Source of the DNA: a virus
Virus record (IMG/VR): IMGVR_UViG_3300023281_000583
Coordinates: 1 to 34,900 of that record
Length of the DNA stretch: 34,900 nt
Direction: 5' to 3' (one strand)
The notes under the pieces are model-generated. The model worked only from the letters and a program-made list of their open reading frames with translations, did no database searches and had not been told where the DNA came from. Positions 1 to 34,460 of this stretch are shown here, in pieces. Within the stretch, counting starts at the first letter, position 1, and every line of letters begins with the position of its first letter. The position numbers and the translations under genes are program-made.

Positions 1-106
1 GAGCTCCCTAGGTCTCGGCAGAGCTCCCTAGGTCTCGGCAGAGCTCCCTAGGTCTAGGCAGAGCTCCCTAGGTCTAGGCAGAGCTCCCTAGGTCTAGGCA
101 GAGCTC
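1..106. repeat. Terminal tandem repeat, five 20-bp units
   Basis: Five head-to-tail copies of a 20-bp unit beginning GAGCTCCCTAGG fill positions 1-100. Units 1-2 differ from units 3-5 at one base (C/A at unit position 16). A sixth copy stops after GAGCTC at 101-106. The window opens exactly on a unit boundary, so the contig probably ends inside the array. In T7, short repeats (SRL/SRR) flank the terminal redundancy, and this array lies at the equivalent genome end. A packaging or terminal-repeat role is inferred. Confidence 0.85.
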
Positions 107-445
107 GGCGCCTTGTCAAAGGACGGGCAAGCAAAGAGACAGATCCAAACCGGCAGCGCGGCGCGGCGGGAGCTCGGCAGGCTTGGCGGTGCCTGACTGG
201 ACAGCGGCGGGAGCTCGATTCGGATTGGGAATCCGAGAAGGCACACCCCCACACCGCACTTGCTGCCCGGTTAGGCGCCGGTAGCCCTTGCTGTGTGCCG
301 CGTGATGTGCCGCCCAGGGCTTGCAGGCCGGAAGGGCTCGCTGTGTGTGCGGATTATGGAATAGCCGCCGGGGGCCCGGGGGGGCGGTAGCCACCAGCGC
401 TATATATCGACCCCTCAGATTTTTGTGCCGTATTTAGGTACCAAG
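107..445. other. Non-coding genome-end region
   Basis: No credible gene is seen here. The reading frames are arginine- and proline-rich and look like chance frames in GC-rich DNA. The stretch holds a 14-bp direct repeat (GCGGCGGGAGCTCG at 163-176 and 204-217), a loosely repeated GCTGTGTG-containing segment (about 290-355), a G/C-run segment near 365-390, and the AT-rich GCTATATATCGA at about 400. This content fits the untranslated end of a T7-like genome. Confidence 0.5.
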
Positions 446-479
446 AAAAAAAGAGAGGAAGGCGCCCTAGAAGCCTTCC
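446..479 (-). terminator. Intrinsic terminator at the end of the rightward T7-equivalent map
   Basis: On the minus strand, GGAAGGC (479-473) pairs perfectly with GCCTTCC (463-457) around a 9-nt loop. TCTC and seven T residues (452-446) follow. A 7-bp GC-rich stem with a U tract is a standard intrinsic terminator. It lies downstream of all the late genes, so it would end late transcripts or the short transcript from the candidate promoter at 634-656. Confidence 0.75.
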
Positions 480-493
480 CCTCAAAAGGGTGT

Positions 494-507
494 CACACAC
501 ACACACA
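494..507. repeat. (CA)7 microsatellite
   Basis: Seven CA dinucleotides lie between the terminator and the candidate promoter. A matching TG tract occurs at 29397-29408, just upstream of the primase-helicase start. No function can be assigned. Confidence 0.8.
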
Positions 508-633
508 GAACCTCTAGAGCTCGCCTACGATTTATCGCTTTACAACTAAGAGGTCTTAGTCCTTCTAAGCATCGTCTTTCTATGTCTTGGTGGTCGAGCT
601 CTATAGCCCCTTATAAGGGCTTGGATTCTTCTT

Positions 634-656
634 CCTTCTATACTGGCACCTAATCC
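634..656 (-). promoter_or_regulatory. Candidate phage RNA polymerase promoter (SP6-like, phi-OR position)
   Basis: The minus strand reads ATTAGGTGCCAGTATAGAAG. My hand alignment gives 17 of 21 matches to the SP6 promoter core (ATTTAGGTGACACTATAGAAG), including the GGTG recognition block and TATAGAAG with the predicted +1 G at 638. It lies downstream of the last late gene and upstream of the genome end. T7 carries its phi-OR promoter at that place. The polymerase of this phage is divergent, so use of this promoter is inference. Only one convincing copy was found. Confidence 0.5.
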
Positions 657-698
657 TCAGGGGCGTCTTCCCGGGGCATTACGTCCGGGAGCGGTATG

Positions 699-742
699 GA
701 TAGAAATGTATACACCTGTCAACTTTTGAGTGCATTTCTATC
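699..742. repeat. 10-bp inverted repeat
   Basis: GATAGAAATG (699-708) and its exact complement CATTTCTATC (733-742) are separated by 24 bp. The element lies just after the stop of the last late gene. No T tract follows on either strand, so it is not an obvious terminator. It could be a protein-binding site or an RNA processing structure. Confidence 0.55.
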
Positions 743-761
743 AGGCCGTCTGCTTTGAGCA

Positions 762-1073
762 TTACGGCAGCGCCGGCGGTAGTTTGATAATGGGGGCCCC
801 GGGCCTGCCAGTGCCTGGGCGGGAGCCTTGCGCGATGTGCATACCTTCCCACTGGGGCTCTTTTGAGTCCCAAGAGTTTGACACTTCAACTCCCAAGGCC
901 ACCTTCATAGCCTCGTCGAGCGGTACGCCGGCCTGGAGTAGCCCGTGTAGCAGGTTGGTCCCGTGGTTTGTGCGGGCCTTTGGGAACTTCGGAGTAGGGA
1001 GAGCTCCCGTGAATCCGATTTCCTCAGAGTTGAGGACGATGCGTATTTTCTTCTGTTTCTTGTCGTAGTTCAT
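762..1073 (-). CDS. Small hypothetical late protein downstream of terminase
   Basis: This 103-residue protein of unrecognised family follows the large terminase by one base (terminase stop at 1077-1075, ATG at 1073-1071). T7 places its gene 19.2-19.5 small proteins in the same position. The N-terminus is lysine-rich (MNYDKKQKKIRIVLN), and the last third is rich in Gly and Pro (GSRPGTGRPGAPIIKLPPALP, interrupted by no charged cluster). An upstream in-frame start at 1109 would overlap terminase by 35 nt. I prefer 1073 because it abuts the terminase stop. There is no signal peptide or membrane segment. It is probably coexpressed with terminase; the function is unknown. Confidence 0.6.
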   Translation of the reverse strand: MNYDKKQKKIRIVLNSEEIGFTGALPTPKFPKARTNHGTNLLHGLLQAGVPLDEAMKVALGVEVSNSWDSKEPQWEGMHIAQGSRPGTGRPGAPIIKLPPALP

Positions 1074-1074
1074 T

Positions 1075-2766
1075 TCACATCCATGTGTCGGGCTTGTGGG
1101 CCTCACCAAACGTGCGTGTGTTTATTATGGACTCAAGCTCCTTTTCAAGCAACTCATCGCGCCTGGTGTTCATCTCTTCAGTAGCCGAGCGGCCGGCAGC
1201 CTCTGCCCAGTATTTCACAGCCATACTAAGGACGTCAAGGCGGTCGTCGTGGATCAGGGCTCCCCTCTCGCGTGTACAGCGCGTCATCTGCCAGAAGAGC
1301 CTGTACTGGTTTTGCTTCTCCGGCGGAAGTGTTAGAGTGGACTCGTAGTCCGCTTCGATAAGGCTGGAGGAGACTACCAGTTTATGCTGATTCATTACTG
1401 GCTCAAGAGTATCAACGATTCGCTTATTCTTCTGGATGTGATGGCGGACCTCTTCAGTCGTGACGGGGTAGATACGCCTGAGGTGCTGCTTGAGCAGTTC
1501 CAGAAACATACCGTCCCCAAAGTTCGATTCTACGAGAATAAGGTTTACTTGATGCAGCTTGGCTTTGTGTGCGAGTTTTTCGAGCACCTCTTTGCCGTAT
1601 CCACCAGCGATGCCAGTACATTCATGGACGTACATAAAACCGTTCAGCACTTTTACGACACAGAACGAAGTTTCGTCCTTGCCGCGTCCAGAGGGGTCAA
1701 TCGCCATGACTGAGCCGCTATATGGAAGCCAATCCCCGTCGATCACCATTGGTTTGTGGTAGTGGTCCCCAGCAAAGGAGACGTTCGGGAGCTCAGGCAG
1801 CCTGTAGTCGTCTGACCCGGCCCAGATCAGGTTCTCAGGGGCTTTATCGGGGTTGACGTCCATGACTACGAGGTCGCGGACGCGCAGCGGGTACTTGTTC
1901 TCGTCTTCAAGAGAAGGGTCCAGCATGAACTGCTGGGCGAACCCGCTTCGGCCGTAGCTGGCTTCGCGCTCTGCGAGCTCGGTCGTGTTGAAGCGACAGG
2001 GGTCCGTGGGCTCTCCAACGATCTCTGGGGCCTCTCTGATCTCTTCTTCGATCTTCGGGGCTAGGGTGTTCCCGTAGCGCCTCCTCAGGCGCTCTGTGGG
2101 GTACCTTGCAGGCCACACTCGAGTGGTGTAGCCCCGCTCTGGCAGTATGTGGTAGAGGCTACCAGCGTCCGTCTGAGGCGTCCCCAGGAAGACGATCTCC
2201 CCACCGGGCTTGACGATGGCTTCAAACTCTTTGACGAGCTCTGAAAGCTTGTCTCGCTGCCCCTGGGTGGCTGCGTTGTTCAGTGACTCCGCGTCATCAG
2301 AGATGATTAGGTCGGCGCGAGACCCTGTAAGCTGCCCTGTGATGCCGACAGACTTGACCGAAGGAGCGTGCGCCGCTTTGGCCGGCCCTACATCGAACGC
2401 GATCTTGGAGGTACGCTGGGATTCCGCCGGCTTCAAGTGCGCCAGGATCGGCATTTCCCAGATCATGCGCTGCACGAAAGTTGAAAAGTCGTCAGATCGA
2501 GACTTACTGGCCGATACCACCAATATGTTTTTCTGAGGGTCTAGCAGTAGCTGCCAGACTGCGTAGGCGCTAGTAAGGAACGACTTACCCACCCCTCGAA
2601 ACGCGCATATGGTCCGGCGGCGTGGGCCATGCTGCAAGAACGCGCTAATGTCGTACTGGATGGACGTAGGCTCTGGCAGGTTTAGATAGCTCCAAACCAG
2701 ATAAACAAAGTTCCTAAAGTCTTTGAGCTCTTCAGGGACTTCAAACTCGGCCTTACGCTTGCTCAT
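1075..2766 (-). CDS. Terminase large subunit (T7 gp19-like DNA maturase B)
   Basis: This is the ATP-driven DNA packaging motor and nuclease, which acts at the portal to fill the procapsid and cut concatemers. The protein has 563 residues, close to T7 gp19 (586). The ATPase half shows a Walker A motif (AFRGVGKSFLT, about residues 55-65), a Walker B (LIISDDAE, about 153-160) and the coupling motif FLGTPQT (about 193-199). The C-terminal RNase H-like nuclease shows the acidic residues expected: D357 in MAIDPSGRG, E413 in LVESN and D507/D508/D511 in HDDRLDVL. The start overlaps the small-terminase stop as ATGA, so the two subunits are translationally coupled. It is confidently assigned. Confidence 0.97.
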   Translation of the reverse strand: MSKRKAEFEVPEELKDFRNFVYLVWSYLNLPEPTSIQYDISAFLQHGPRRRTICAFRGVGKSFLTSAYAVWQLLLDPQKNILVVSASKSRSDDFSTFVQRMIWEMPILAHLKPAESQRTSKIAFDVGPAKAAHAPSVKSVGITGQLTGSRADLIISDDAESLNNAATQGQRDKLSELVKEFEAIVKPGGEIVFLGTPQTDAGSLYHILPERGYTTRVWPARYPTERLRRRYGNTLAPKIEEEIREAPEIVGEPTDPCRFNTTELAEREASYGRSGFAQQFMLDPSLEDENKYPLRVRDLVVMDVNPDKAPENLIWAGSDDYRLPELPNVSFAGDHYHKPMVIDGDWLPYSGSVMAIDPSGRGKDETSFCVVKVLNGFMYVHECTGIAGGYGKEVLEKLAHKAKLHQVNLILVESNFGDGMFLELLKQHLRRIYPVTTEEVRHHIQKNKRIVDTLEPVMNQHKLVVSSSLIEADYESTLTLPPEKQNQYRLFWQMTRCTRERGALIHDDRLDVLSMAVKYWAEAAGRSATEEMNTRRDELLEKELESIINTRTFGEAHKPDTWM

Positions 2767-2981
2767 TCCCCCTGAGCTCGCACTTTAGCAAACGGAACAA
2801 TCTTTGACAGGTCGTGGATGGGCGTTTCCGATTCAGCGCTTACGTCCATACCGTTGTCTTTTAGGAACTTCACCGCCACACCTATCTCTGCTGCGCTGGC
2901 TTCTCCCGACTGGAGTCTATCAATAAGCTCTTCGGCTGTGATACGATGCAGATGTTCGAGCAGTGCTTCTTTTGATTTCAT
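2763..2981 (-). CDS. Terminase small subunit (T7 gp18-like DNA maturase A)
   Basis: This 72-residue protein lies directly upstream of the large terminase and overlaps it by ATGA. Small terminases recognise concatemer DNA and recruit the large subunit. The helical region followed by AVKFLKDNGMDVS (about residues 36-48) matches the FLKDN-type segment common in T7-like small terminases. At 72 residues it is slightly shorter than T7 gp18 (89). Its ATG overlaps the ATG of the plus-strand metallopeptidase gene within the palindrome CATG (2979-2982), so the two genes diverge with no spacer. No strong Shine-Dalgarno is visible. The call rests on synteny and the short motif. Confidence 0.8.
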   Translation of the reverse strand: MKSKEALLEHLHRITAEELIDRLQSGEASAAEIGVAVKFLKDNGMDVSAESETPIHDLSKIVPFAKVRAQGE

Positions 2982-3285
2982 GGGTCTCAGTAAGAAAATA
3001 AAGCAAGGGGTTGAGACCTTGCATGACTTAGTGCCTCTTCCTCACCCAGTGAGGGTGACGCGCCCAAAGCGTATGGACGAGTATGGGACGTGCGAGTACC
3101 TTGAAGAGCCCGACAGGTTCCTGATCCGCATTTACGCACGCCTGGCAGACAACGCAGCGCTTGCGATTCTAGCTCACGAATGGGCGCACGCCGTATCCTG
3201 GACTGAAGACCCTCACGTAGACGCGCACGGGCCCGAATGGGGGGTCGCCTACTCGAGGTGTTATCAGGCACTGTGGGAAATCTAA
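2980..3285 (+). CDS. SprT-like HExxH metallopeptidase, the only plus-strand gene
   Basis: This 101-residue protein carries LAHEWAH (H66, E67, H70), a classical zinc-protease HExxH motif. It is followed by DAHGPEW with H83-G84, a plausible third zinc ligand in the arrangement seen in SprT-like proteins. The minus-strand frame over the same DNA (2987-3271) is arginine-rich low-complexity sequence with no motif, so the plus strand is the coding one. ATG at 2980 overlaps the small-terminase ATG as CATG. The TAA at 3283-3285 overlaps the lipoprotein stop at 3284-3282. No Shine-Dalgarno or clear sigma70 promoter is visible upstream. An independently expressed cargo gene or a lysis-associated enzyme are both possible. 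The family is likely; the role is unknown. Confidence 0.75.
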   Translation: MGLSKKIKQGVETLHDLVPLPHPVRVTRPKRMDEYGTCEYLEEPDRFLIRIYARLADNAALAILAHEWAHAVSWTEDPHVDAHGPEWGVAYSRCYQALWEI

Positions 3286-3629
3286 GCTGCTGGCGGCTGG
3301 GGAGGCGTTGAGCCTACTGCTTCGCCGCGTGCCGTGCGCTGATTGTTGCGGTAGCGGTTGACGCCATAGCCGCCTACGGCCGCCGTAGCTCCCATTTGGG
3401 CTAGAAGCGCTAACCAGCCGGCCGGCGTCGTAGGCATAGACTTGACGAGCTCTTCCGTGCGGAGCTCGATCTCATCGGCTTTAGCCTCAATGGCGTCGTG
3501 AAGCTCAGGCTCAGTGATTACCCCCTGTTGGTAGGCGTCCACAGAGTCTGCGAGGTCCCGAAGGTCGCCAGGAGTGGCGCAGGAAGCGGTGAGGGCCAGC
3601 AGGATGCCGGCGATGTAGGTGATTTTCAT
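3282..3629 (-). CDS. Predicted lipoprotein in the lysis region (possible outer-membrane spanin)
   Basis: This 115-residue protein begins with a lipoprotein signal (MKITYIAGILLALTASC; lipobox LTAS-C, Cys17), so the mature protein would be anchored by a lipid. A mostly acidic helical segment follows. Then comes a hydrophobic stretch, GWLALLAQMGATAAVGGYGV (about residues 72-91), and a Pro-rich tail. It starts in a TAATG overlap with the holin-like gene behind a good ribosome site (AGGAG, 7 nt from ATG). T7-like phages carry Rz/Rz1 spanin genes around here, so a spanin subunit is plausible. The second hydrophobic segment is unusual for Rz1, so the role stays open. Confidence 0.65.
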   Translation of the reverse strand: MKITYIAGILLALTASCATPGDLRDLADSVDAYQQGVITEPELHDAIEAKADEIELRTEELVKSMPTTPAGWLALLAQMGATAAVGGYGVNRYRNNQRTARGEAVGSTPPQPPAA

Positions 3630-3847
3630 TAGGAGCTCCTAGCAATAAAGGAAACGAGGGTCGAGATTACAGCCGTAATGACCGCGCAAGCCCCCATGAG
3701 AGTGGATTTAGAGGCCTCAAGAGCCCTCATACGGTCGGCCAACTTTTCAAGGTCGCCCTGCACGATTCTATCCCGCGCAATCAAAGAGTCTACTTTGCCC
3801 TCAAGTCGGCCAAGTGCCAAAAGAATACGCTGATCGTCGGGTTGCAT
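3629..3847 (-). CDS. Holin-like small membrane protein
   Basis: The protein has 72 residues. An N-terminal charged, heptad-like helix (LALGRLEGKVDSLIARD through LEKLADRMRALEASK) is followed by one C-terminal transmembrane segment, TLMGACAVITAVISTLVSFI (about residues 49-68). This is the organisation of XhlA-type holin or holin-associated proteins. T7 has its class II holin (gp17.5) at the same position, between tail fibre and small terminase. Holins permeabilise the inner membrane at lysis time. The call combines topology and synteny; no sequence match to T7 gp17.5 is claimed. Confidence 0.6.
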   Translation of the reverse strand: MQPDDQRILLALGRLEGKVDSLIARDRIVQGDLEKLADRMRALEASKSTLMGACAVITAVISTLVSFIARSS

Positions 3848-3865
3848 GGCTGATTAGAACGCACG

Positions 3866-4306
3866 CTACGGCGCGGTGGGGTAGGCGTTAGTGCGTCCTG
3901 GGAAGTCCGCCTTTACCTTGATGATAAAGTTGAGGCAAAGGTCTTGGCCGGCAACTGTACCGAGGACCGTGGGGGCCGGGTCGTGGTAAGCGTCGATACC
4001 CAGAAGGGCAGAGTTACCACACTCGTTACCGGAGTCTGTCGCGCTCATCGTGCGGTTCCCGACGATACCCCTGCCCCGAAGATCCGGCACGTTGAACGTA
4101 GTCGAGCCGTCGCCAACGCCGTAATACGTCCCTAGCACTTGGAACAGTTTGGCGTACGTAGTACGGCTGACAGCCTGCCCATTACAAAACAGGAACTCGT
4201 CAGGCGTTGCGTGGCCGACATAAGGCAGGACTACGCCTACCGGAAGAGCCAGGGACACTTCTTCAAGAAGGTCAGGCTCGAAAGATCTTTGAGTGATTTG
4301 GGTCAT
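3866..4306 (-). CDS. Tail-collar domain protein (short tail fibre / fibre tip)
   Basis: This 146-residue protein contains a phage tail-collar module: VGVVLPYVGHATPDEFLFCNGQ, then TYAKLFQVLGTYYGVGDGSTTFNVPDLRGRGIVG (about residues 23-90). This is the characteristic pattern of the collar and microcystin-dependent protein family. I chose the ATG at 4306 because it overlaps the tail-fibre stop as TAATG. An in-frame codon at 4324 would add six residues. Such proteins sit at the distal end of receptor-binding fibres. Position directly after the fibre gene suggests the two form one adhesion device. Confidence 0.85.
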   Translation of the reverse strand: MTQITQRSFEPDLLEEVSLALPVGVVLPYVGHATPDEFLFCNGQAVSRTTYAKLFQVLGTYYGVGDGSTTFNVPDLRGRGIVGNRTMSATDSGNECGNSALLGIDAYHDPAPTVLGTVAGQDLCLNFIIKVKADFPGRTNAYPTAP

Positions 4307-6243
4307 TAGATGTACAACTCCCATTTGACTGTAGGGCCATAGCCGCCAGCTTCGGAATCTTCACTTCCGTGGGTGAGCACGAAACTTGACGTTGTCTTGC
4401 TTGAAACAGCTACATCGGAGCCGTAATGCACCGTGGGGTGCTCTTCAAAAGCGCGGATCTTGTAGAAAGCGTCAGGCATCGCCCAGTTGAAGTTGACCTG
4501 CGTTTGCGTGGTAGAAATGCGGCTATACGTCCAGTCATGCGCTGAGGTCTCCATAATGTCTTCGCCGTAGTTGATGCTAACTCGGGTTTCGTTACCCACA
4601 GAGGTACCATCAATCTTGAAACCCCCAGCGCGTGCCAGCCCCCACACCCTTATGTTTTGTACGTACCTGTAGCCTAAGTAGTGTACCCGGAACAGCGAGT
4701 CGTTATTAGGGCTGCGTACGTCTAGCACGTCAATGATCGGGGTAGCGGCCCGCAGGCTAGTGCTACCGTGTGCGCTCGTTTGTAGGACGGCGACTCCGGC
4801 GTTGTCTTGTACTTCAAAAACTTCGTCGGCCTGACTAGAGCCTCCAGTGACTACGACGTGCCTAGCCTCCGAACCGGACGAGGTGTTTTGATACACGCGC
4901 AGAGCTTGGTTGCCCGCAGAGAGCTTCCAAGTTCCCGCCGGGGCGCTGTCTTGCTCGACGGCCAGAAGCTCATTACTCCCGTCCGTGATCGCCAGCAAGT
5001 CGTTGGTACCCGCACTGCGGTCAATCTTGAGCCCACCGACGCCAGTCGTAGTGCTTATGGATAGTCGAGTCGCTGCGTCTTCCGTCGCCGTGCCAATAGT
5101 CAGGTGGCCCAGAGGCGAAATCGCAGTACCTATCTCGGCGTTTGCAGCGTCTCGGAGCTCGACAAGGTTTGCGCTCTGCGTTCCTGAGCTCTTCTTGATG
5201 ACCAGCCCTTGGGTAGCGTCGTTGCCAGGCTGAAGAGTTACAGACCCCGCCGTCACCGCTGCGCCGGCCTTGGTTGTGATGCCCCCGCCCACTCCCACGC
5301 TAAACTCAGTCGCCCCAAGGTGATCTTGAATCACGAAAGGGTCTGCGGTCTGCGCGGTTAGCTGCTTTGCCGTGATAATAGACGCGTCAGCGCTACCGGA
5401 TTCAAACAACACGTTACCAGTGAGTGCCGACTTAGAAATGCCCATGTTCTGAGCGCTGACGCGAGAGCCACTTGGCGGGCAGTTTGTGTTCCCTGTGTTT
5501 CCGGGAAACGAGCTCGCTTCAAACTCGATGTAAAACTTATTGTCCGTCGCGTCGAGGTATACGCGGAAGTCTCGGGCCACCTCGCCGCTAGAGGGCGTCT
5601 GTAGAATACCGTCTACCTCAACGACAAAAAGCTCGTTGACGGTGGCGGAAGGATCGGGGCTCGTTAGCTGGAAACGGTTTGTGGTTCCGTCTGCCACCAC
5701 TTCCCACGCTTGAGCGCTTGCGGCGCCCGCAAAGACGGCCTGCGTGTCTACGTAGTCTTTAGTTACCGCGTCGGTAGGGCCAACAGGCGTTGCGAGGTTG
5801 GTGATTTTTCGCGCTTCCGCGTCTAATGCACCACTCACTCCCTCTTTCAACGCCCCTAGTAGCGTATCAAGGGCCTCTTGCGCGAGGAACTGGTTGTGAA
5901 TGGCGCTCTGGTCGAGGTTAGCTTCGGTCAGCAAAGAAGCGTTCGTAAAGTCTACCGTACGGTCTGCTAAAGCTCGGGGAGTCTCGCGGTAGAGCTCGAC
6001 CACTGAGCCGTTTGATACGGTAACAGTCGCGCCAAAGGTCAGCGTGGACACTGCCGGGACTTCATCAATGTCGAAGTCGGTAACGGCAGCGCCGTTTACC
6101 TTCGCTTTGATGTGTGCAGGCAGCAGGTACGGCTTAGACGCGGTAGCTGCGCTACCCGCTTCAAGGTCGAAGACGATGTCAAACTGTTTTGACGTAGCTT
6201 GGCCGCTAGTGGCCGTGTACGTTTTCTTAGAGAAAAAAGTCAT
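4306..6243 (-). CDS. Tail fibre protein (T7 gp17-like N-terminus)
   Basis: The protein has 645 residues. The first 130 or so resemble the T7 tail-fibre N-terminal domain that joins the fibre to the tail (FSKKTYTATSGQATSKQF ... LYRETPRALADRTVDFTNASLLTEANLDQ). The middle is repetitive Ala/Thr/Ser-rich sequence typical of trimeric beta-fibres, with motifs such as DHLGATEFSVGVGGG and recurring LRDAANAEIG-type segments. The C-terminal 100 residues are aromatic-rich and presumably reach the host surface. T7 gp17 is 553 residues. The start overlaps the stop of the giant internal protein gene by one base. The fibre family is confident; receptor specificity cannot be read. Confidence 0.9.
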   Translation of the reverse strand: MTFFSKKTYTATSGQATSKQFDIVFDLEAGSAATASKPYLLPAHIKAKVNGAAVTDFDIDEVPAVSTLTFGATVTVSNGSVVELYRETPRALADRTVDFTNASLLTEANLDQSAIHNQFLAQEALDTLLGALKEGVSGALDAEARKITNLATPVGPTDAVTKDYVDTQAVFAGAASAQAWEVVADGTTNRFQLTSPDPSATVNELFVVEVDGILQTPSSGEVARDFRVYLDATDNKFYIEFEASSFPGNTGNTNCPPSGSRVSAQNMGISKSALTGNVLFESGSADASIITAKQLTAQTADPFVIQDHLGATEFSVGVGGGITTKAGAAVTAGSVTLQPGNDATQGLVIKKSSGTQSANLVELRDAANAEIGTAISPLGHLTIGTATEDAATRLSISTTTGVGGLKIDRSAGTNDLLAITDGSNELLAVEQDSAPAGTWKLSAGNQALRVYQNTSSGSEARHVVVTGGSSQADEVFEVQDNAGVAVLQTSAHGSTSLRAATPIIDVLDVRSPNNDSLFRVHYLGYRYVQNIRVWGLARAGGFKIDGTSVGNETRVSINYGEDIMETSAHDWTYSRISTTQTQVNFNWAMPDAFYKIRAFEEHPTVHYGSDVAVSSKTTSSFVLTHGSEDSEAGGYGPTVKWELYI

Positions 6244-9200
6244 TAGCGTAATAGGTCAAGAAGCTGGTGCTCGGGACGTCCGGCTTTACGCGCCGAACGA
6301 TTGTACATAGAAATGTCGTAGTTTTGTTTGAGCATAGGGAACTCTTGTATTAGCTCCTGCCACGCTTGTGTCCGGTAGCGCGTCACTGTCTTGCGAAGCG
6401 CGTCCATTTTAGGGCTAGATGCCCCATCTCCGGCGAAATCGGGCAGTCGCTGGTAATCCCCGCTATCAATAAGACCTTCAAGCGATTGACGCATTGTGCG
6501 GCCATCCATCTGCACTTCGCCCTGAAGCTCTTGGTATCGGTCGTATGCGCCGTACTCTCGCAAATCTAGCGAACCAAACTTGACCGGCTCCGGCGGGCCC
6601 ATGATCTCGCCAAACTTCGCAGCCTCCGTGGCAATCTTGTCGCTCGATACTTGCGAGTGCGGGATAGGGCTGAACAGTCCCAATAGCGGGCCGCCAAGGT
6701 GCTGCATCTTCTCCATAGGCTCGCCCATGAAGTTGCGCTTAGGCATTAGGTCACCGCCAAGGAAGGGAAGTCGAGTCTTCCACTTGTCGGTCAGATCTCG
6801 CACATCGCGCAGCGTCGGGTCCAACTGGCCGGCCACTTGGGCAGACAGGTTAGGAACCACGGCGCCGCCCATGTTGAAGCCTACAGTCTTGCCGTAATAC
6901 TCCGGGTTGTCGATTGCGGAAGCGAAGTTGATCATGCCCGACAGGTAGGACTTCTCGCCCAGGTTGCGGAAAATCGCCATCGTGGCTCCCATCATCAGAG
7001 CCTTGATGCCTTCCTCCTCCGGGTCATCAGTGTAAGGGTTGCCGTTGAACCCCTCCGCAATGTCGGCCACGATGCCTACTACCGAAGCCAGGGGGTCGAG
7101 GCGTCCGTAGCCAAAATACGAATCACCGAACCGGACGCTGTAAGGCTGCCAGCCGGCCTCGCGCAGGATGCGCTGGGCGTTTGGGTCCTTAGGTCCGCCC
7201 CCGGTGACTTCCCCGCTGTTGGCTTTCATCCATACCAGCGAGATAATGCTGCTAGACATAGTCAGCCGGCCGAGAGCGTCTGCCGTTTCTTCCGGGTCTT
7301 GTATGTTGCGGAAGGCTTGAACGTCCCCGGAGATCAGTTGCTTGAGCTTTGTAATGCCCGGAATAATGCCATCGCTAATGGGGGATGCGAGCATATCAGC
7401 CGCTTCAGCCATCAGGTTCGTCGGCGTGTTGATGAATGGCACCAAGAAGCGCAGGTAGCGCACATCCCCAGTAAAGTTCTGTAAAGCTCGGCCCAGGTTG
7501 TAAATCTCTGACGACACAACATTACGCCCGACTTCACGGTCTGCCGGGAGCGTAAACGTAGAGCGGCGGGAAAACTCGAGAGCCTTGTCAGCCAGCGCTT
7601 GGCGCTCTTGGCTGTGGTTCTTCTTGACGTAGTCCTGCATATAACGCCGCGCCGCAGCCTTATCCAGGCCCTTAGAGTACGCCTCTTTCAGGCCGTCACG
7701 CTTGACGCGCTTGAGCGTGTAGTGGTTACCTTCCCCAATAATCGTCTGGAACTCAGACGTAATGTAGTTAGCCTGAGCCGCTGCGTCTTCGGGAAACGCC
7801 TTGACCGCTCGGCGGGTTAGCTCTTCCGTCACGACCAAGCGCGAGTGCATCTGTTTGAACACCTCATCCATACCACCTAGCAGGCGCGTAGGCCACCCAC
7901 CCAGGGATACAGTATTGAAGATACCATTGAGGAGGCCCTTGAGCGGCTGCGGCATGGTCCGCTCTCCGAGCTCGTTCGCCTGGCCGCCCATGTTGAAGCG
8001 TTTGACGTAGTCCCGACTGGTCTTACCGGAGTAAACACCTTGCGTTGAATCGAACGCGGCCCGGCTGCCTGCCGAGTCGTATTGCGCTGCGCCAGCGTCC
8101 ATCGCAATCCGGCCGATAGCGAACGACTCTTTGAAGATCGTACGCAGGCCCACCACGGTGCTTACCATCTTCTTCACGTCCTTGTTAGCCCCGGCAAAAT
8201 CGTCCGTTAGGCCAGTGGCTTGTAAGGCTGTGCGTCCCACACGCCTCGAGCCGTGCATCATGATTCCGTAGATCGTGTTAGATAGCGTGTTGACCGCGTG
8301 GGTGCGTGGGCCAGACAGCAAGCTATTGTAGAAGATCTCAAGAACAGCATCGAGCTTGTCCCCGCCGTTACTAGTGGCGGCAGAGCCCAGGGCGAGCTCT
8401 CCCTCTTTCATAGCAACGCGCAAGCGGGCAATGTATTCGTCTACCGTTTCGGCGCCGCCGCGTGCAGTTTGCAGAGCCCGCTCGGTCGCTAAGATTGCGG
8501 CGTCTGCCGTCTCCCGGCTAGTGGCCCGATCCGCGACTTCAGCAAACGGTACATCCGCTTGGTCAGCCAGGCCTCGACCTTTTTGGCTCGCGATGCTCTT
8601 CAACTGCTTCGCCAAAGGCTCGTATAAAGAGGTCCAGTACAAGAAGTCAGACTTAGCCACCGTTATATCTGCCATGTTGCCGGCCGCTTCCGCAGCCGCA
8701 AGGCGGGCTTCGGCGTCTTGGGCGGAGCCAAATACGTCGGCAGCGAACGAGCGGATTGCGCGGCTTCGCGCCATGAACCGCCGGCCGTCTTTCGTGTTTA
8801 TGTCGAAGATGCGCTCTACGTCTGCGCGGGTTCCCCTTCGCATTGCAGAAGCTAGGTCTGAGTAATAACGCTTTTCCGACTCTACGATCCACTCACGGTC
8901 AGCCTCGGCAACAGAGTCGAGATACTCCGTTTCTTCCCTGACGTGCTGCTCGAAAAGATCACGGGCGGTGTCGCTGTTTGCAACGTCTTCGACGCCATTC
9001 TCACCAGGCATAGCCACGGTGCGCCGTACGTTGAGCGGCAGCGACGGGTCGCGGCGAGCGTCAGGAAAGCCCGTATCCGGCACGTCCCGGCCGCCCTGCC
9101 TTTGGGGCTCTGCGGCCTCACTAGCAAACGGCACTCGACCGCTTTCAATCTGGGCGACCTTAGCCCGCGCAGCCTGCAACTCCCGAAGCTCTTTAGCGTC

Positions 9201-21880: not shown

Positions 21881-22027
21881 TAGATTATCCTCCTAAGGAT
21901 TGGGTTGAGTCAAAAACAGGGTTAGGTTGTAGCCTTGCTGTAATCCACTCGCCTTAGGTTGTCCGCCGTAGCGGGCCGAGGGTCGTCGGGGGCACGCGAA
22001 TGCTATCAGTGTGCAGTGTATCGGCTA
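21881..22027 (-). promoter_or_regulatory. Capsid leader with strong Shine-Dalgarno
   Basis: This 147-nt spacer is the longest gap inside the structural region. It carries AGGAGGA at 21894-21888, 7 nt before the capsid ATG. T7 has its strongest class III promoter (phi10) here. I looked for a T7/SP6-type TATAG core on the minus strand and found only ACACTGATAGCA (about 22010), which is a poor match. A promoter is expected, but its sequence is not identified. Confidence 0.5.
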
Positions 22028-30476: not shown

Positions 30477-32843
30477 TTATGTTGCGAAGTGTCGGCTTGT
30501 GGCGACTAGGGTAGGGTCAAAGTCCCCTACCATCGGCGGCTCAGGGAGCTCGACGTTGGCGGGGAGTAAGGTCAGCAGGTGATTACGCACCTGCGTCAAA
30601 TAATCCTCGTCTCGGCTGAACATAGCAGCAACAGATTCGAGGAGGGCTTTGCGTAAGTTGTCTAGATTACACGCATGAGTTGCAAACTGATCGAAGATTA
30701 CGCTAATGTCCGATATGCCATACTTGTCTGTGGCGGTGTTGATGGCCTCGCAGGCTATGGCCGCGTCTAGCGAGTGCGTCAAGTTAGCCATAATGGTCTG
30801 CGAGCAGCGGCGCTTGCTCAAACGAGGGCTAGACTCTTGTACAAGGTTGGTTGTGTATGCGGACCCTAGCGCCGTGCGTACTTTTTTGTACTTGGGCTTG
30901 CGGTAGTCATTGACCACGGGGAATCCGGTAGGTGCGACCCACTCAAAAGCTACGCCGTGCTCTACGCAAATGTTAGAGACTTCACGCGCCCATTCCATGC
31001 CCTTGATTACGGCCGGTATAAGCTCGAGCGTCGCCAGCTTGATCTGGTCAGCCAGGAAGTAGCAAGCCTTTTGCTCGTTAGTAAATAGGTACGTACCCTT
31101 GAGCTCTTGCAGCTTGTCGTATAGCGCCTGAGCTAACCCTACCCTGGTCCCCGAAAATGGAATGATCATTACCGCAGGTTTAGTAAGCGCCCGCGTAACT
31201 AGGCCACTAACGTACCACCCACGTGCAATAGGATCCTCACTGGACTCAAGCTTACTTAGTACCTTGTCCGCCACCGCCTGGTACAGGTCCGCCGGTGTAG
31301 TATTCGGGTAGACGTTAGTCGCCTTAGCCGTGCGCTCGTCCCGCAAGAGTAGCGCCCATATCTGACAGCCACTAGACGATGCGTCAATGGCAATGGGTAG
31401 TTGAGATTGAAAACTGGCCGGGCTCTCCCAAAACTCATCGGCCTCGAAAGCCCATGCAAGGAACTGCCACGGGCGCCTAGCTTCGCACCACATCAAGTGC
31501 TCTAGGGGATTGGCACCCACGTAGCGAAGCTCGTCTTTGTGGTGAGCTACCCAGTCCAAGAGCTCTTGCGTGCCGCCCTTGATGCCGTACAGTGAGGCCC
31601 CGTAAGCCAAGAACGCCGCAGAGGCATCGGATGCGTCAGTCTTTAGCGGCAGCGCCTTAGCAAAATGCAGCAGCGCCCGCGCTCCGTCTGAGCCTTGCGT
31701 ATGTAGGCCAGCGGGTATCGTATACATACGCCCCCGAAAGTCGAGGCAGGCAGGCTGCCACAGGGGGCGTCCAATGTGGGCACGCGCAATCCCCAGCAGT
31801 TGGCCGGCAAGCAGGCGCTTGCTCTTGTGCGCGTTGTTGCGGCTGCGTATCTGATTACGCTCTCGCCCGTAGGTTTTGCGGGCCTTTGGGTTGGTGTCTA
31901 TATCAACCGGCTTTGGCGGGTAGGGCTCAAGCTCCGGCGACGGTAGGCCGCCCAGCGCCAGGCCGCGCTGCCAGACGTACTCCATCACATCAAACACCGC
32001 CTCGTTGACTACATACGGCGTCTCTTGGTGCGCGTTTAGTGCCGAGTACACACGGCTAAGATCGTGCGGTGCGTAAATATCAGCCCTGCCCTTTTTGACG
32101 AGGGTCAGGGGTAGAGACACATAGCCCCCCACGTCCGGCGCGGACCAACGCACCGGCGGGTGTGTTAGTAACGGGTAGAGAGGGGTCATAAACTCCGCCT
32201 CACCGTGCGCCTCCGCCAACCATCCGCTCATATAGGAGCTCGCGCTCACCATACGCACCAACTTTTTGCCCTGCCGCACGTTTGCGCTAGTTATCAGCCC
32301 GGTGGATATTTCCATGAGCTCCAGCGCGACTACGCCCGCCCGCAGCCGCGACTCGCGAGGTAGCCTAGGGGCCACGTCGCCCTTGATAGTGCGGAGCCCT
32401 TCAAGTATCCACGTCTGCTGACGTGCGTCACCCCGGTGGCTAAACTGCGCGGCCTCCAGCGCCTGGATTAGCGTGGGGTAGCTACTCTTAGCCACGGCCA
32501 GGCGCCCCTCTGTTTCAATGGCGGTACCAATAGAGATAGCCAAAGACGTCTGCGGGCGCTCGCGGGTTACGCCGTTGATCACTTCGCGCAGAATAATAAC
32601 AGCCAGCAAAGCGGGGTCGCCCACGACTTGAAACACGTCTAGCGCGGAATGCCGGCGACCAGCGCCGCTTGCTGCTCGGCCCATCCACCCCTCGAGGGCG
32701 GCGCAAAGGGGTACACAGGCCGAGCGCAAAAGAGTCCTGCCCACCAGCGTGTCCGTCTCATTCTTCGTACCCGCAGCGGCCCGCCAGCGGGCCCAATACT
32801 TATCAACTGTGGCCCGCTGCGCTTTATCCTCCGCCGAGCTCAT
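30477..32843 (-). CDS. Single-subunit DNA-dependent RNA polymerase (gp1-like), divergent motifs
   Basis: The protein has 788 residues (T7: 883). It transcribes the phage middle and late genes. Recognisable landmarks are CLDFRGRMYTIPAG (about 367-380), motif A LPIAIDASSSG (D487), motif B RALTKPAVMIIPFSGTR (K555, F563), NLTHSLDA (about 687-694) and motif C VIFDQFATHAC (D718). The catalytic Asp, Lys and Asp are kept. But T7 GSCSGIQH reads ASSSGCQI, T7 Tyr639 is Phe563, and T7 HDSFG reads FDQFA. The C-terminus ends SRHFAT rather than T7 DFAFA. The shorter N-terminal domain fits a divergent promoter specificity. The start overlaps the integrase stop as ATGA. Confidence 0.96.
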   Translation of the reverse strand: MSSAEDKAQRATVDKYWARWRAAAGTKNETDTLVGRTLLRSACVPLCAALEGWMGRAASGAGRRHSALDVFQVVGDPALLAVIILREVINGVTRERPQTSLAISIGTAIETEGRLAVAKSSYPTLIQALEAAQFSHRGDARQQTWILEGLRTIKGDVAPRLPRESRLRAGVVALELMEISTGLITSANVRQGKKLVRMVSASSYMSGWLAEAHGEAEFMTPLYPLLTHPPVRWSAPDVGGYVSLPLTLVKKGRADIYAPHDLSRVYSALNAHQETPYVVNEAVFDVMEYVWQRGLALGGLPSPELEPYPPKPVDIDTNPKARKTYGRERNQIRSRNNAHKSKRLLAGQLLGIARAHIGRPLWQPACLDFRGRMYTIPAGLHTQGSDGARALLHFAKALPLKTDASDASAAFLAYGASLYGIKGGTQELLDWVAHHKDELRYVGANPLEHLMWCEARRPWQFLAWAFEADEFWESPASFQSQLPIAIDASSSGCQIWALLLRDERTAKATNVYPNTTPADLYQAVADKVLSKLESSEDPIARGWYVSGLVTRALTKPAVMIIPFSGTRVGLAQALYDKLQELKGTYLFTNEQKACYFLADQIKLATLELIPAVIKGMEWAREVSNICVEHGVAFEWVAPTGFPVVNDYRKPKYKKVRTALGSAYTTNLVQESSPRLSKRRCSQTIMANLTHSLDAAIACEAINTATDKYGISDISVIFDQFATHACNLDNLRKALLESVAAMFSRDEDYLTQVRNHLLTLLPANVELPEPPMVGDFDPTLVATSRHFAT

Positions 32844-33838
32844 CGAGCGGCGTCTTCCATTAGCGAAATAGCACGCTCGTAGTTCTTCGGGGCCAGGTGA
32901 GTGTAGCGCAGCGTGGTCTGCACGTCAGTATGACGGGCAAGGTCGCGTATAGTCACCAGAGGGACGCCAGCCATAGCGAGGCGCGAGCAGAACGTGTGGC
33001 GGGCTGTGTGCCATACCCATTCAGGCCGGCCGGCTGCTTTACGCATCCTGCCCCAGGCGTAGCGGGCCCTGTGTTGGTTCATGTCTGCCCACGGTCCAGC
33101 GTCTTGGGACTCCCGCCGCTTGAGCACCTCGGCGGCCGCCTTAGTTAGCGGGATACCGCCGGGCCGTGCGCCCTTGTGGTGCCATACGGTAACCACCCCA
33201 TTAGAGCAGTCTGCCCATTTCAAATCGAACGCTTCTTGCAGGCGCAGGCCGGTGTCACACAAGAAGGTGAAAAGATCCGCGTACGGTACAAGCTCAAGAT
33301 CTTTGAAAATGCGTTCGATCTGGGCGCGGTCCTCTTCGGAGTAATAGTCCACCCTGTTGTTGTTCTCTTTCTTGCGCGGGATCTCTACGTGGCCTTGGAC
33401 CCAACCCCGCCGCGATGCGTAACGCAGTACGCGTGACAGGATCGCCAACTTCCGGTTGATAGTGGCGTCCGACAATGACAGAGTGTCCAGATGCTGCGCG
33501 TACGCTTCCACCGCGTCCTCGTCCATACGTTGGATGGCGTACGCCGATCCGAAGAACTCGACCATAGTCTTGATGTTGCTGTTGATCGTGTCCAGGCTCT
33601 TCGCGTCCTTCCAGTAACGGGTGCGCGTCCGCTCGACTAGCTCACCTAAAGTGACGGGCGGAGGGGCCACCGAGGTACGCATACTTGGCGGGTTGTCGCT
33701 GCCCTTGGTAAAGGCCAGCTTGGTCTCGAGCTCCCACTGACTAGCGGCGCTCTCGGTCTTGAACTGGCGGCGGTAGCGGCTGCCTAGAGGGCTCGTAATA
33801 TCCACCACCCAAGATTTACCACGACGGCGGACGCTCAT
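32840..33838 (-). CDS. Tyrosine integrase
   Basis: This 332-residue tyrosine recombinase has a SAM-like core-binding domain (about 60-155). The catalytic residues are all visible: R199 (TGLRLQEA), K222 (HHKGARPGGIPL), H277 and R280 (HTARH), H303 (LARHTD) and the nucleophile Y312 (LRYTHLA). It should integrate the phage at a host attB site. It is translationally coupled on both sides: its ATG overlaps the stop of the small membrane protein, and its stop overlaps the RNA polymerase ATG. Integrase next to RNA polymerase is the arrangement of several marine podoviruses. I found no attP or tRNA fragment nearby. Confidence 0.96.
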   Translation of the reverse strand: MSVRRRGKSWVVDITSPLGSRYRRQFKTESAASQWELETKLAFTKGSDNPPSMRTSVAPPPVTLGELVERTRTRYWKDAKSLDTINSNIKTMVEFFGSAYAIQRMDEDAVEAYAQHLDTLSLSDATINRKLAILSRVLRYASRRGWVQGHVEIPRKKENNNRVDYYSEEDRAQIERIFKDLELVPYADLFTFLCDTGLRLQEAFDLKWADCSNGVVTVWHHKGARPGGIPLTKAAAEVLKRRESQDAGPWADMNQHRARYAWGRMRKAAGRPEWVWHTARHTFCSRLAMAGVPLVTIRDLARHTDVQTTLRYTHLAPKNYERAISLMEDAAR

Positions 33839-34070: not shown

Positions 34071-34095
34071 GTCAGACCCTCAGGATCAGTCTGAC
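34071..34095 (-). repeat. 7-bp inverted repeat overlapping a stop codon
   Basis: GTCAGAC (34071-34077) and GTCTGAC (34089-34095) are exact complements around an 11-nt loop that contains the stop codon of the KKPTT gene. The hairpin abuts the terminator-like stem at 34042-34070. Its GGTCTG arm could instead pair with CAGACT of that stem, so the two structures may be alternatives. Confidence 0.55.
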
Positions 34096-34460
34096 TGCTT
34101 GACGGTCAGGGTGTTTTCCCCCGTGTCTAGGGAGATATGAGCCCCACTAAAGCTCATGACACTGCGGCCTAGGGCGCTCTCGATTACGAGGGTAAACGGG
34201 CTAGACTTTGTGCGCGGGGCGGCCTCCTCTAAGCGGCTGTAAGCTCGCTTGGTGGTGGGCTTTTTGGTGGTGGGCTTTTTGGTGGTGGGCTTTTTGGTGG
34301 TGGGCTTTTTGGTGCCGAACGCAGCACCCCAGGCTCGAGGGTACACGGTCACGCCGCAATGCTGGGCCTTGAGTTTGGCAGCCGGGTATCCCTCGATGGG
34401 GTTGACGTTAGTCTTGAGCCACTTAGCCGTCTCGGCCAGGGTCATCTTGTTTGCTTTCAT
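34086..34460 (-). CDS. Early protein with a KKPTT repeat linker
   Basis: The protein has 124 residues and no recognised family. An N-terminal domain (MTLAETAKWLKTNVNPIEGYPAAKLKAQHCGV, about 6-37, outlined) is joined by four perfect KKPTT repeats (about 51-70) to a C-terminal segment predicted to be beta-rich (SPFTLVIESALGRSV ... ISLDTGENTLTVKQ). The lysine-rich linker resembles histone H1-like or AlgP-like DNA-binding tails. The N-terminal helix could be a small DNA-binding or protein-binding fold. It sits in the early region, where T7-like phages encode host-takeover proteins. No Shine-Dalgarno is evident. Confidence 0.7.
   Translation of the reverse strand: MKANKMTLAETAKWLKTNVNPIEGYPAAKLKAQHCGVTVYPRAWGAAFGTKKPTTKKPTTKKPTTKKPTTKRAYSRLEEAAPRTKSSPFTLVIESALGRSVMSFSGAHISLDTGENTLTVKQSD
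34251..34310. repeat. Four perfect 15-bp tandem repeats (KKPTT)
   Basis: The unit GGTGGTGGGCTTTTT occurs four times without a mismatch and encodes KKPTT on the minus strand. Identity at synonymous positions points to recent slippage-driven copy number change, so strain variation in repeat number is likely. Confidence 0.95.

What the first reader, a model, noticed from the sequence alone, without database searches (positions are those of the whole stretch)
2979..3285. A lone inverted metallopeptidase gene fitted exactly between minus-strand genes
The only credible plus-strand gene encodes an HEWAH...HG protein. Its ATG overlaps the small-terminase ATG (CATG), and its stop overlaps the lipoprotein stop. 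A gene inverted with essentially zero added sequence, inside the lysis/packaging operon and against all phage transcription, needs its own promoter. It could be a cargo gene expressed in lysogens (an integrase is present), a protease acting on virion or envelope proteins, or an antisense-coupled regulator of terminase.
Basis: partly seen in the sequence, partly recalled or inferred. Interest (0 to 1): 0.7.

Follow-up and report, generated by a model that had tools for sequence, protein, structure and literature searches.

The report
Antisense SprT-like protease beside phage terminase
A small clade of integrase-bearing T7-like phages keeps one backwards gene, a compact zinc-protease (SprT/Spartan type), interlocked start-to-start with the DNA-packaging gene; it is real and conserved, and it sits at a spot where sister phages carry a DNA-repair-type phosphoesterase and have flipped the whole structural half of the genome.

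Summary
Window 2980-3285 (+) encodes a 101-aa protein that passes Pfam's SprT-like cut-off and folds with high confidence like the human SPRTN protease core. It is the only plus-strand gene in this T7-like, integrase-bearing phage. Its ATG shares CATG with terS, and its stop overlaps the neighbouring lipoprotein stop. The same inverted gene, at the same CATG junction, occurs in five further lineages (protein identity down to 49%), under strong purifying selection, while the antisense frames fall apart. It is therefore not an artefact or a recent insertion.

In the sister clade, terS is also head-to-head with an opposite-strand gene, but there it is a calcineurin-like phosphoesterase (phrog_284) heading an inverted structural block, so this junction is an inversion breakpoint. 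In unrelated phages the same phosphoesterase is often followed directly by a SprT-like gene, usually in the replication, head or packaging region. The two halves of this recurrent pair thus alternate in the slot beside terS. The best reading is a cytoplasmic DNA-metabolism or packaging-linked zinc protease. Function, promoter and timing of expression are not shown.

The parts
2980..3285 (+). SprT-like zinc metalloprotease gene, 101 aa (HEWAH at residues 66-70, third His 83)
   Evidence: PF10263 above the curated cut-off; AF2 pLDDT 95.5; Foldseek top hit 6mdx SPRTN; purifying selection
2979..2982 (.). CATG: start codons of the SprT-like gene (+) and terS (-) overlap head-to-head
   Evidence: identical CATG in all sequences of the clade
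3282..3285 (.). 4-nt stop/stop overlap with the lipoprotein gene
   Evidence: sequence; a 4-nt overlap also in L005, L006, L007, L008; 35 nt in L010
2763..2981 (-). small terminase subunit (terS, 72 aa)
   Evidence: phrog_891 8.8e-15, PF11123 6.8e-14
1075..2766 (-). large terminase subunit (terL, 563 aa)
   Evidence: phrog_38 4e-111, PF22530
3282..3629 (-). 115-aa lipoprotein with N-terminal lipobox and C-terminal hydrophobic segment, u-spanin-like (inference); not conserved as a neighbour across the clade
   Evidence: ORF translation; the neighbour differs in L007, L008, L010
3629..3847 (-). 72-aa holin-like protein (one C-terminal hydrophobic segment), present across the clade
   Evidence: tblastn 51-86% in relatives; the function is inference
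30477..32843 (-). T7-type single-subunit RNA polymerase
   Evidence: PF00940 3e-54
32840..33838 (-). tyrosine integrase
   Evidence: PF00589 1.8e-20, phrog_1

Best explanation
The locus is a genuine, selected gene for a minimal (catalytic-core only) SprT-like zinc protease, held antisense and start-to-start with terS in one clade of integrase-bearing T7-like phages. Shown: gene, predicted fold, conservation, fixed junction, purifying selection. Inferred: it is a cytoplasmic protease that clears proteins bound or crosslinked to phage DNA during replication or before packaging. This is the kind of job done by SPRTN/Wss1, and in other phages the gene is paired with an SbcD/Mre11-like phosphoesterase. 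It probably points backwards because the 5' side of terS is a recombination and inversion boundary in this lineage, and a gene already head-to-head with terS travels with it, since their start codons overlap. It must be read from a plus-strand promoter inside terS/terL or further left; none was identified.
For: PF10263 in all six members. pLDDT 95.5; Foldseek 6mdx (SPRTN, DPC repair) prob 1.00, TM 0.67, and phage SprT-like proteins in BFVD. CATG invariant while the left neighbour changes. dN much lower than dS. TerL tree: SprT clade 100/99, sister to the inverted clade 98/96, jointly 100/98. In the sister clade terS is head-to-head with the phrog_284 phosphoesterase operon and the whole structural block is inverted. 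No phosphoesterase in the SprT clade, no SprT in sister records. Outside T7-likes, phrog_284 is followed directly by SprT in 15 of 27 loci, and all 11 phosphoesterase genes of this family among the SprT loci lie directly upstream of SprT, near ParB/MTase and TerL, portal and head-morphogenesis genes, or downstream of a DNA helicase. LUZ100, a T7-like phage with integrase, shows antisense transcription in its structural region (PMC10134795).
Against: The Foldseek E-value is modest (8.6e-3), and sequence search of the PDB finds no SPRTN. The protein lacks the DNA-binding modules of SPRTN. No promoter or ribosome-binding site was found for it. Some phage relatives look like lipoproteins (L114, L131, L137), so not all of the wider family acts on DNA. 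Jumbo-phage authors favour host-protein targets for phage SprT-like enzymes (PMC7824862). The phosphoesterase-SprT count is dominated by a few related phage groups.
Confidence: 0.5

Rival explanations
1. Lysogenic-conversion or moron gene: the lone plus-strand gene is the one gene read in the prophage, when minus-strand phage transcription is off; the protease then acts on host proteins or excludes other phages.
For: An integrase is present and it is the only plus-strand gene. T7-like phages with integrases have prophage relatives (LUZ100, PMC10134795).
Against: No flanking promoter or terminator and no intergenic room. Not patchy: fixed in the clade with conserved junctions. GC and GC3 are ordinary. 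Unrelated phages keep the family mostly in co-directional replication, head or packaging operons.
Confidence: 0.25
2. Cis-antisense regulation: plus-strand transcription through terS/terL and the SprT-like gene lowers terminase expression, and the gene's position exists for that reason.
For: CATG puts the two genes start-to-start in all members, so each 5' untranslated region must lie in the other gene. LUZ100 has antisense RNA in its structural region.
Against: Protein-level purifying selection is not needed for this. terS synonymous sites are not unusually conserved. LUZ100's antisense RNA maps downstream of the MCP, not at terS.
Confidence: 0.12
3. Virion, envelope or head-maturation protease cleaving structural or cell-envelope proteins.
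For: Sits between lysis and packaging genes. Some phage relatives carry a lipobox-like N-terminus. In L206/L211 the pair lies between portal or upstream genes and a head-morphogenesis gene.
Against: No signal peptide in this clade. T7-like heads are not known to need proteolytic maturation (established knowledge). The recurrent partner is an exonuclease-type phosphoesterase.
Confidence: 0.1
4. Spurious open reading frame with no product.
For: Long spurious + ORFs are common in this GC-rich window.
Against: Domain match, fold, conservation and codon pattern.
Confidence: 0.02

Closest known systems
Human SPRTN (Spartan) protease domain, PDB 6mdx
   Same: HExxH plus downstream third His, same small zincin core (Foldseek prob 1.00, TM 0.67)
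   Different: Only the catalytic core: 101 aa, without the zinc-binding DNA module or regulatory tail; spacing HExxH-x12-H; about 21% identity
SprT-like proteins of other phages (BFVD entries, mycobacteriophage MPC00488, group 2.2 jumbo phages)
   Same: Same fold and Pfam family
   Different: Those examined here are mostly co-directional with their neighbours; antisense start-to-start overlap with terS was seen only in this clade
phrog_284 phosphoesterase to SprT-like gene pair in unrelated phages (L107, L117, L119, L134, L206, L211)
   Same: Same HEWAHA...H[GSD]..WG..Y family
   Different: There SprT follows the phosphoesterase in one operon; the window clade has SprT alone and its sister clade has the phosphoesterase alone
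T7-like phage LUZ100
   Same: T7-like, integrase, TerL about 55% identical, antisense transcription reported
   Different: Antisense RNA there is thought to be non-coding and lies downstream of the MCP

Membership tests
SprT-like family (PF10263) | profile score above curated cut-off | tested here: met
   28.9 against 25.6 bits; all six clade members match
SprT-like family (PF10263) | HExxH and downstream third His ligand | tested here: met
   H66, E67, H70, H83 invariant; pattern kept in phage relatives
SprT-like family (PF10263) | SprT/SPRTN zincin fold | tested here: met
   pLDDT 95.5; top PDB match 6mdx, TM 0.67, E 8.6e-3; placement of the zinc site in coordinates was not measured
SprT-like family (PF10263) | zinc binding and proteolysis | not testable with these tools
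   needs purified protein
SPRTN/Wss1 DNA-protein-crosslink protease (functional class) | DNA-binding module next to the protease core | tested here: not met
   the 101-aa protein is the core alone
SPRTN/Wss1 DNA-protein-crosslink protease (functional class) | DNA-dependent cleavage of crosslinked proteins | not testable with these tools
   biochemistry needed
Phage moron (cargo gene) | own promoter and terminator around the inserted gene | tested here: not met
   no intergenic sequence; no + promoter-like site in 1-4500
Phage moron (cargo gene) | patchy presence and atypical composition | tested here: not met
   fixed in the clade; GC 56.5% against 57.1%
T7-like phages (Autographiviridae-type) | single-subunit RNAP with T7-type head, tail and terminase genes | tested here: met

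The most novel reading that the evidence does not exclude
The slot divergent from terS in this T7-like lineage alternates between the protease arm (SprT-like) and the nuclease arm (SbcD/Mre11-like phosphoesterase) of one phage system that strips proteins off DNA before packaging. The antisense, start-to-start lock with terS keeps that enzyme tied to the packaging genes through whole-block inversions.
Probability: 0.2. Interest if true: 0.75.

Novelty: new variant of a known kind. Interest (0 to 1): 0.55.

Why it matters
Phage SprT-like proteases are common but have no known job. A conserved start-codon overlap with terminase, plus a recurrent partnership with an SbcD-type phosphoesterase in replication, head and packaging regions, gives a concrete and testable link between protein removal from DNA and genome packaging. 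It also shows that the terS 5' junction is an inversion boundary in T7-like phages, which bears on how their rigid gene order is broken.

Tried and rejected
Embedded promoter: no sigma70-like site on + in 1-4500; terS synonymous sites are no more conserved than those of terL. A terminator-like hairpin on minus at 3022-3003 is not evidently kept in relatives. Phage-RNAP promoter: a motif upstream of the MCP (TACGGCGGACAACCTAAGG, 21952-21970 minus) is kept in relatives but has no copy near the gene. Shine-Dalgarno: absent for the SprT-like gene and terS, but also for many other genes here, so uninformative. Cellular relatives: the genome scan returned only a phage contig binned in a MAG; plasmids gave none. 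A SprT tree does not resolve whether L097 falls inside the clade (AU p 0.26). Scenario 'ancestor inverted, then re-inverted' against 'independent insertion next to a breakpoint': not decided; the second needs fewer events. The label INV for L067 is taken to be an ORF-calling artefact; it falls among co-directional phages.

Full report
WHAT IS THERE. The window is most of a T7-like phage: single-subunit RNA polymerase, tyrosine integrase, primase/helicase, DNA polymerase, portal, scaffold, capsid, nozzle, tail fibre, terS and terL, all on the minus strand. The given gene (2980-3285, +) is the only plus-strand gene that stands up. CATG at 2979-2982 carries both its start and that of terS; its stop overlaps the stop of a 115-aa lipoprotein.

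IS IT REAL. ORF length proves nothing here. The evidence is PF10263 above its cut-off in the window protein and matches in all six clade members, an AF2 model with pLDDT 95.5, 6mdx (human SPRTN core) as best PDB fold match and SprT-like phage proteins in BFVD. The codon pattern is that of a protein under purifying selection (10/10/51 changes at positions 1/2/3 against L005; dN 0.127, dS 1.45), with stops scattered through the antisense frames of relatives.

WHERE ELSE. Of 80 contigs with related TerL, the same antisense gene is at the same place in every one with TerL identity of 76% or more: L005, L006, L007, L008/L009 and L010/L011 (L008 and L009 are identical over the shared stretch, L010 and L011 nearly so). 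CATG is identical in all. The gene left of it changes: lipoprotein (window, L005, L006), a 136-aa membrane protein (L007), the holin-like gene directly (L008), another lipoprotein (L010). So the junction with terS is frozen while the other side turns over.

THE SISTER CLADE. In L012-L015 and L017-L022 (TerL 60-67%) no SprT-like gene was found. terS is again head-to-head with an opposite-strand operon led by the phrog_284 calcineurin-like phosphoesterase (in L012-L015 with a 100-aa gene in between). It starts a block phosphoesterase-portal-scaffold-capsid-...-holin that is inverted as a whole relative to RNAP/exonuclease and terS-terL. A TerL tree makes the SprT clade (100/99) sister to this inverted clade (98/96; joint 100/98); outgroups have terS co-directional. 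The junction is thus an inversion breakpoint in the sister lineage. Whether the window clade descends from an inverted ancestor that flipped back, leaving the first gene behind, or took up the gene on its own is not decided.

THE PARTNER. Among SprT-like loci elsewhere in phages, all 11 phrog_284-type genes found lie directly upstream of the SprT-like gene, same strand. Among phrog_284-type loci outside the inverted T7-like clade, 15 of 27 are followed directly by a SprT-like gene. Neighbours include ParB/methyltransferase and terL (L107, L100), or portal and head-morphogenesis genes (L206) or a head-morphogenesis gene (L211), or a DNA helicase upstream (L221, L227). No such phosphoesterase is found in the window clade. 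The two members of a recurrent pair therefore occupy the same slot beside terS in two sister clades. These counts come from a limited number of related phage groups, and the pairing is an association, not proof of joint function.

HOW IT MOST LIKELY WORKS. A core-only SprT zincin without signal peptide acts in the cytoplasm. Its recurrent partner is of the SbcD/Mre11 type, and these two enzyme types are the protease and nuclease routes known for clearing DNA-protein crosslinks (established knowledge). The likeliest job is removal of proteins from phage DNA in replication or before packaging (inference). Host-protein cleavage or prophage-phase expression remain possible. How the gene is transcribed is open: no promoter was found. 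A T7-like phage with integrase, LUZ100, does have antisense transcription in its structural region (PMC10134795).

WHAT IS KNOWN. SprT-like proteins in phages are known (jumbo phages, PMC7824862; mycobacteriophages, PMC12363180) without an experimentally assigned function in those papers. I found no report of one antisense and start-overlapping with terS, nor of the phosphoesterase pairing, in the papers searched, which cover only the open library.

Noticed in passing
window 1-100: Five copies of a 20-bp tandem repeat (GAGCTCTGCCTAGACCTAGG) at the late end of the genome, as near T7-type terminal repeats.
   Followed up: no
window 409-438 (-): CCTAAATACGGCACAAAAATCTGAGGGGTC, non-coding, is kept in G003 (381-410) and in part in G005 (8445-8461): candidate phage promoter, end-processing or attachment site.
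   Followed up: partly
window 21952-21978 (-): GGCCNGNTACG..GGACAACCT upstream of the capsid gene is kept in relatives: candidate phage promoter.
   Followed up: partly
window 34249-34310: 15-bp tandem repeat (CACCAAAAAGCCCAC) within ORF 34086-34460.
   Followed up: no
window 3282-3629 (-): Lipoprotein with a C-terminal hydrophobic segment: candidate unimolecular spanin.
   Followed up: no
L114, L131, L137, L141: SprT-like domain in proteins with a lipobox-like N-terminus; in L131 and L141 downstream of a T7-type terL on the same strand.
   Followed up: partly
G009, G012: T7-like phages with the whole structural block inverted against replication and terminase genes.
   Followed up: partly
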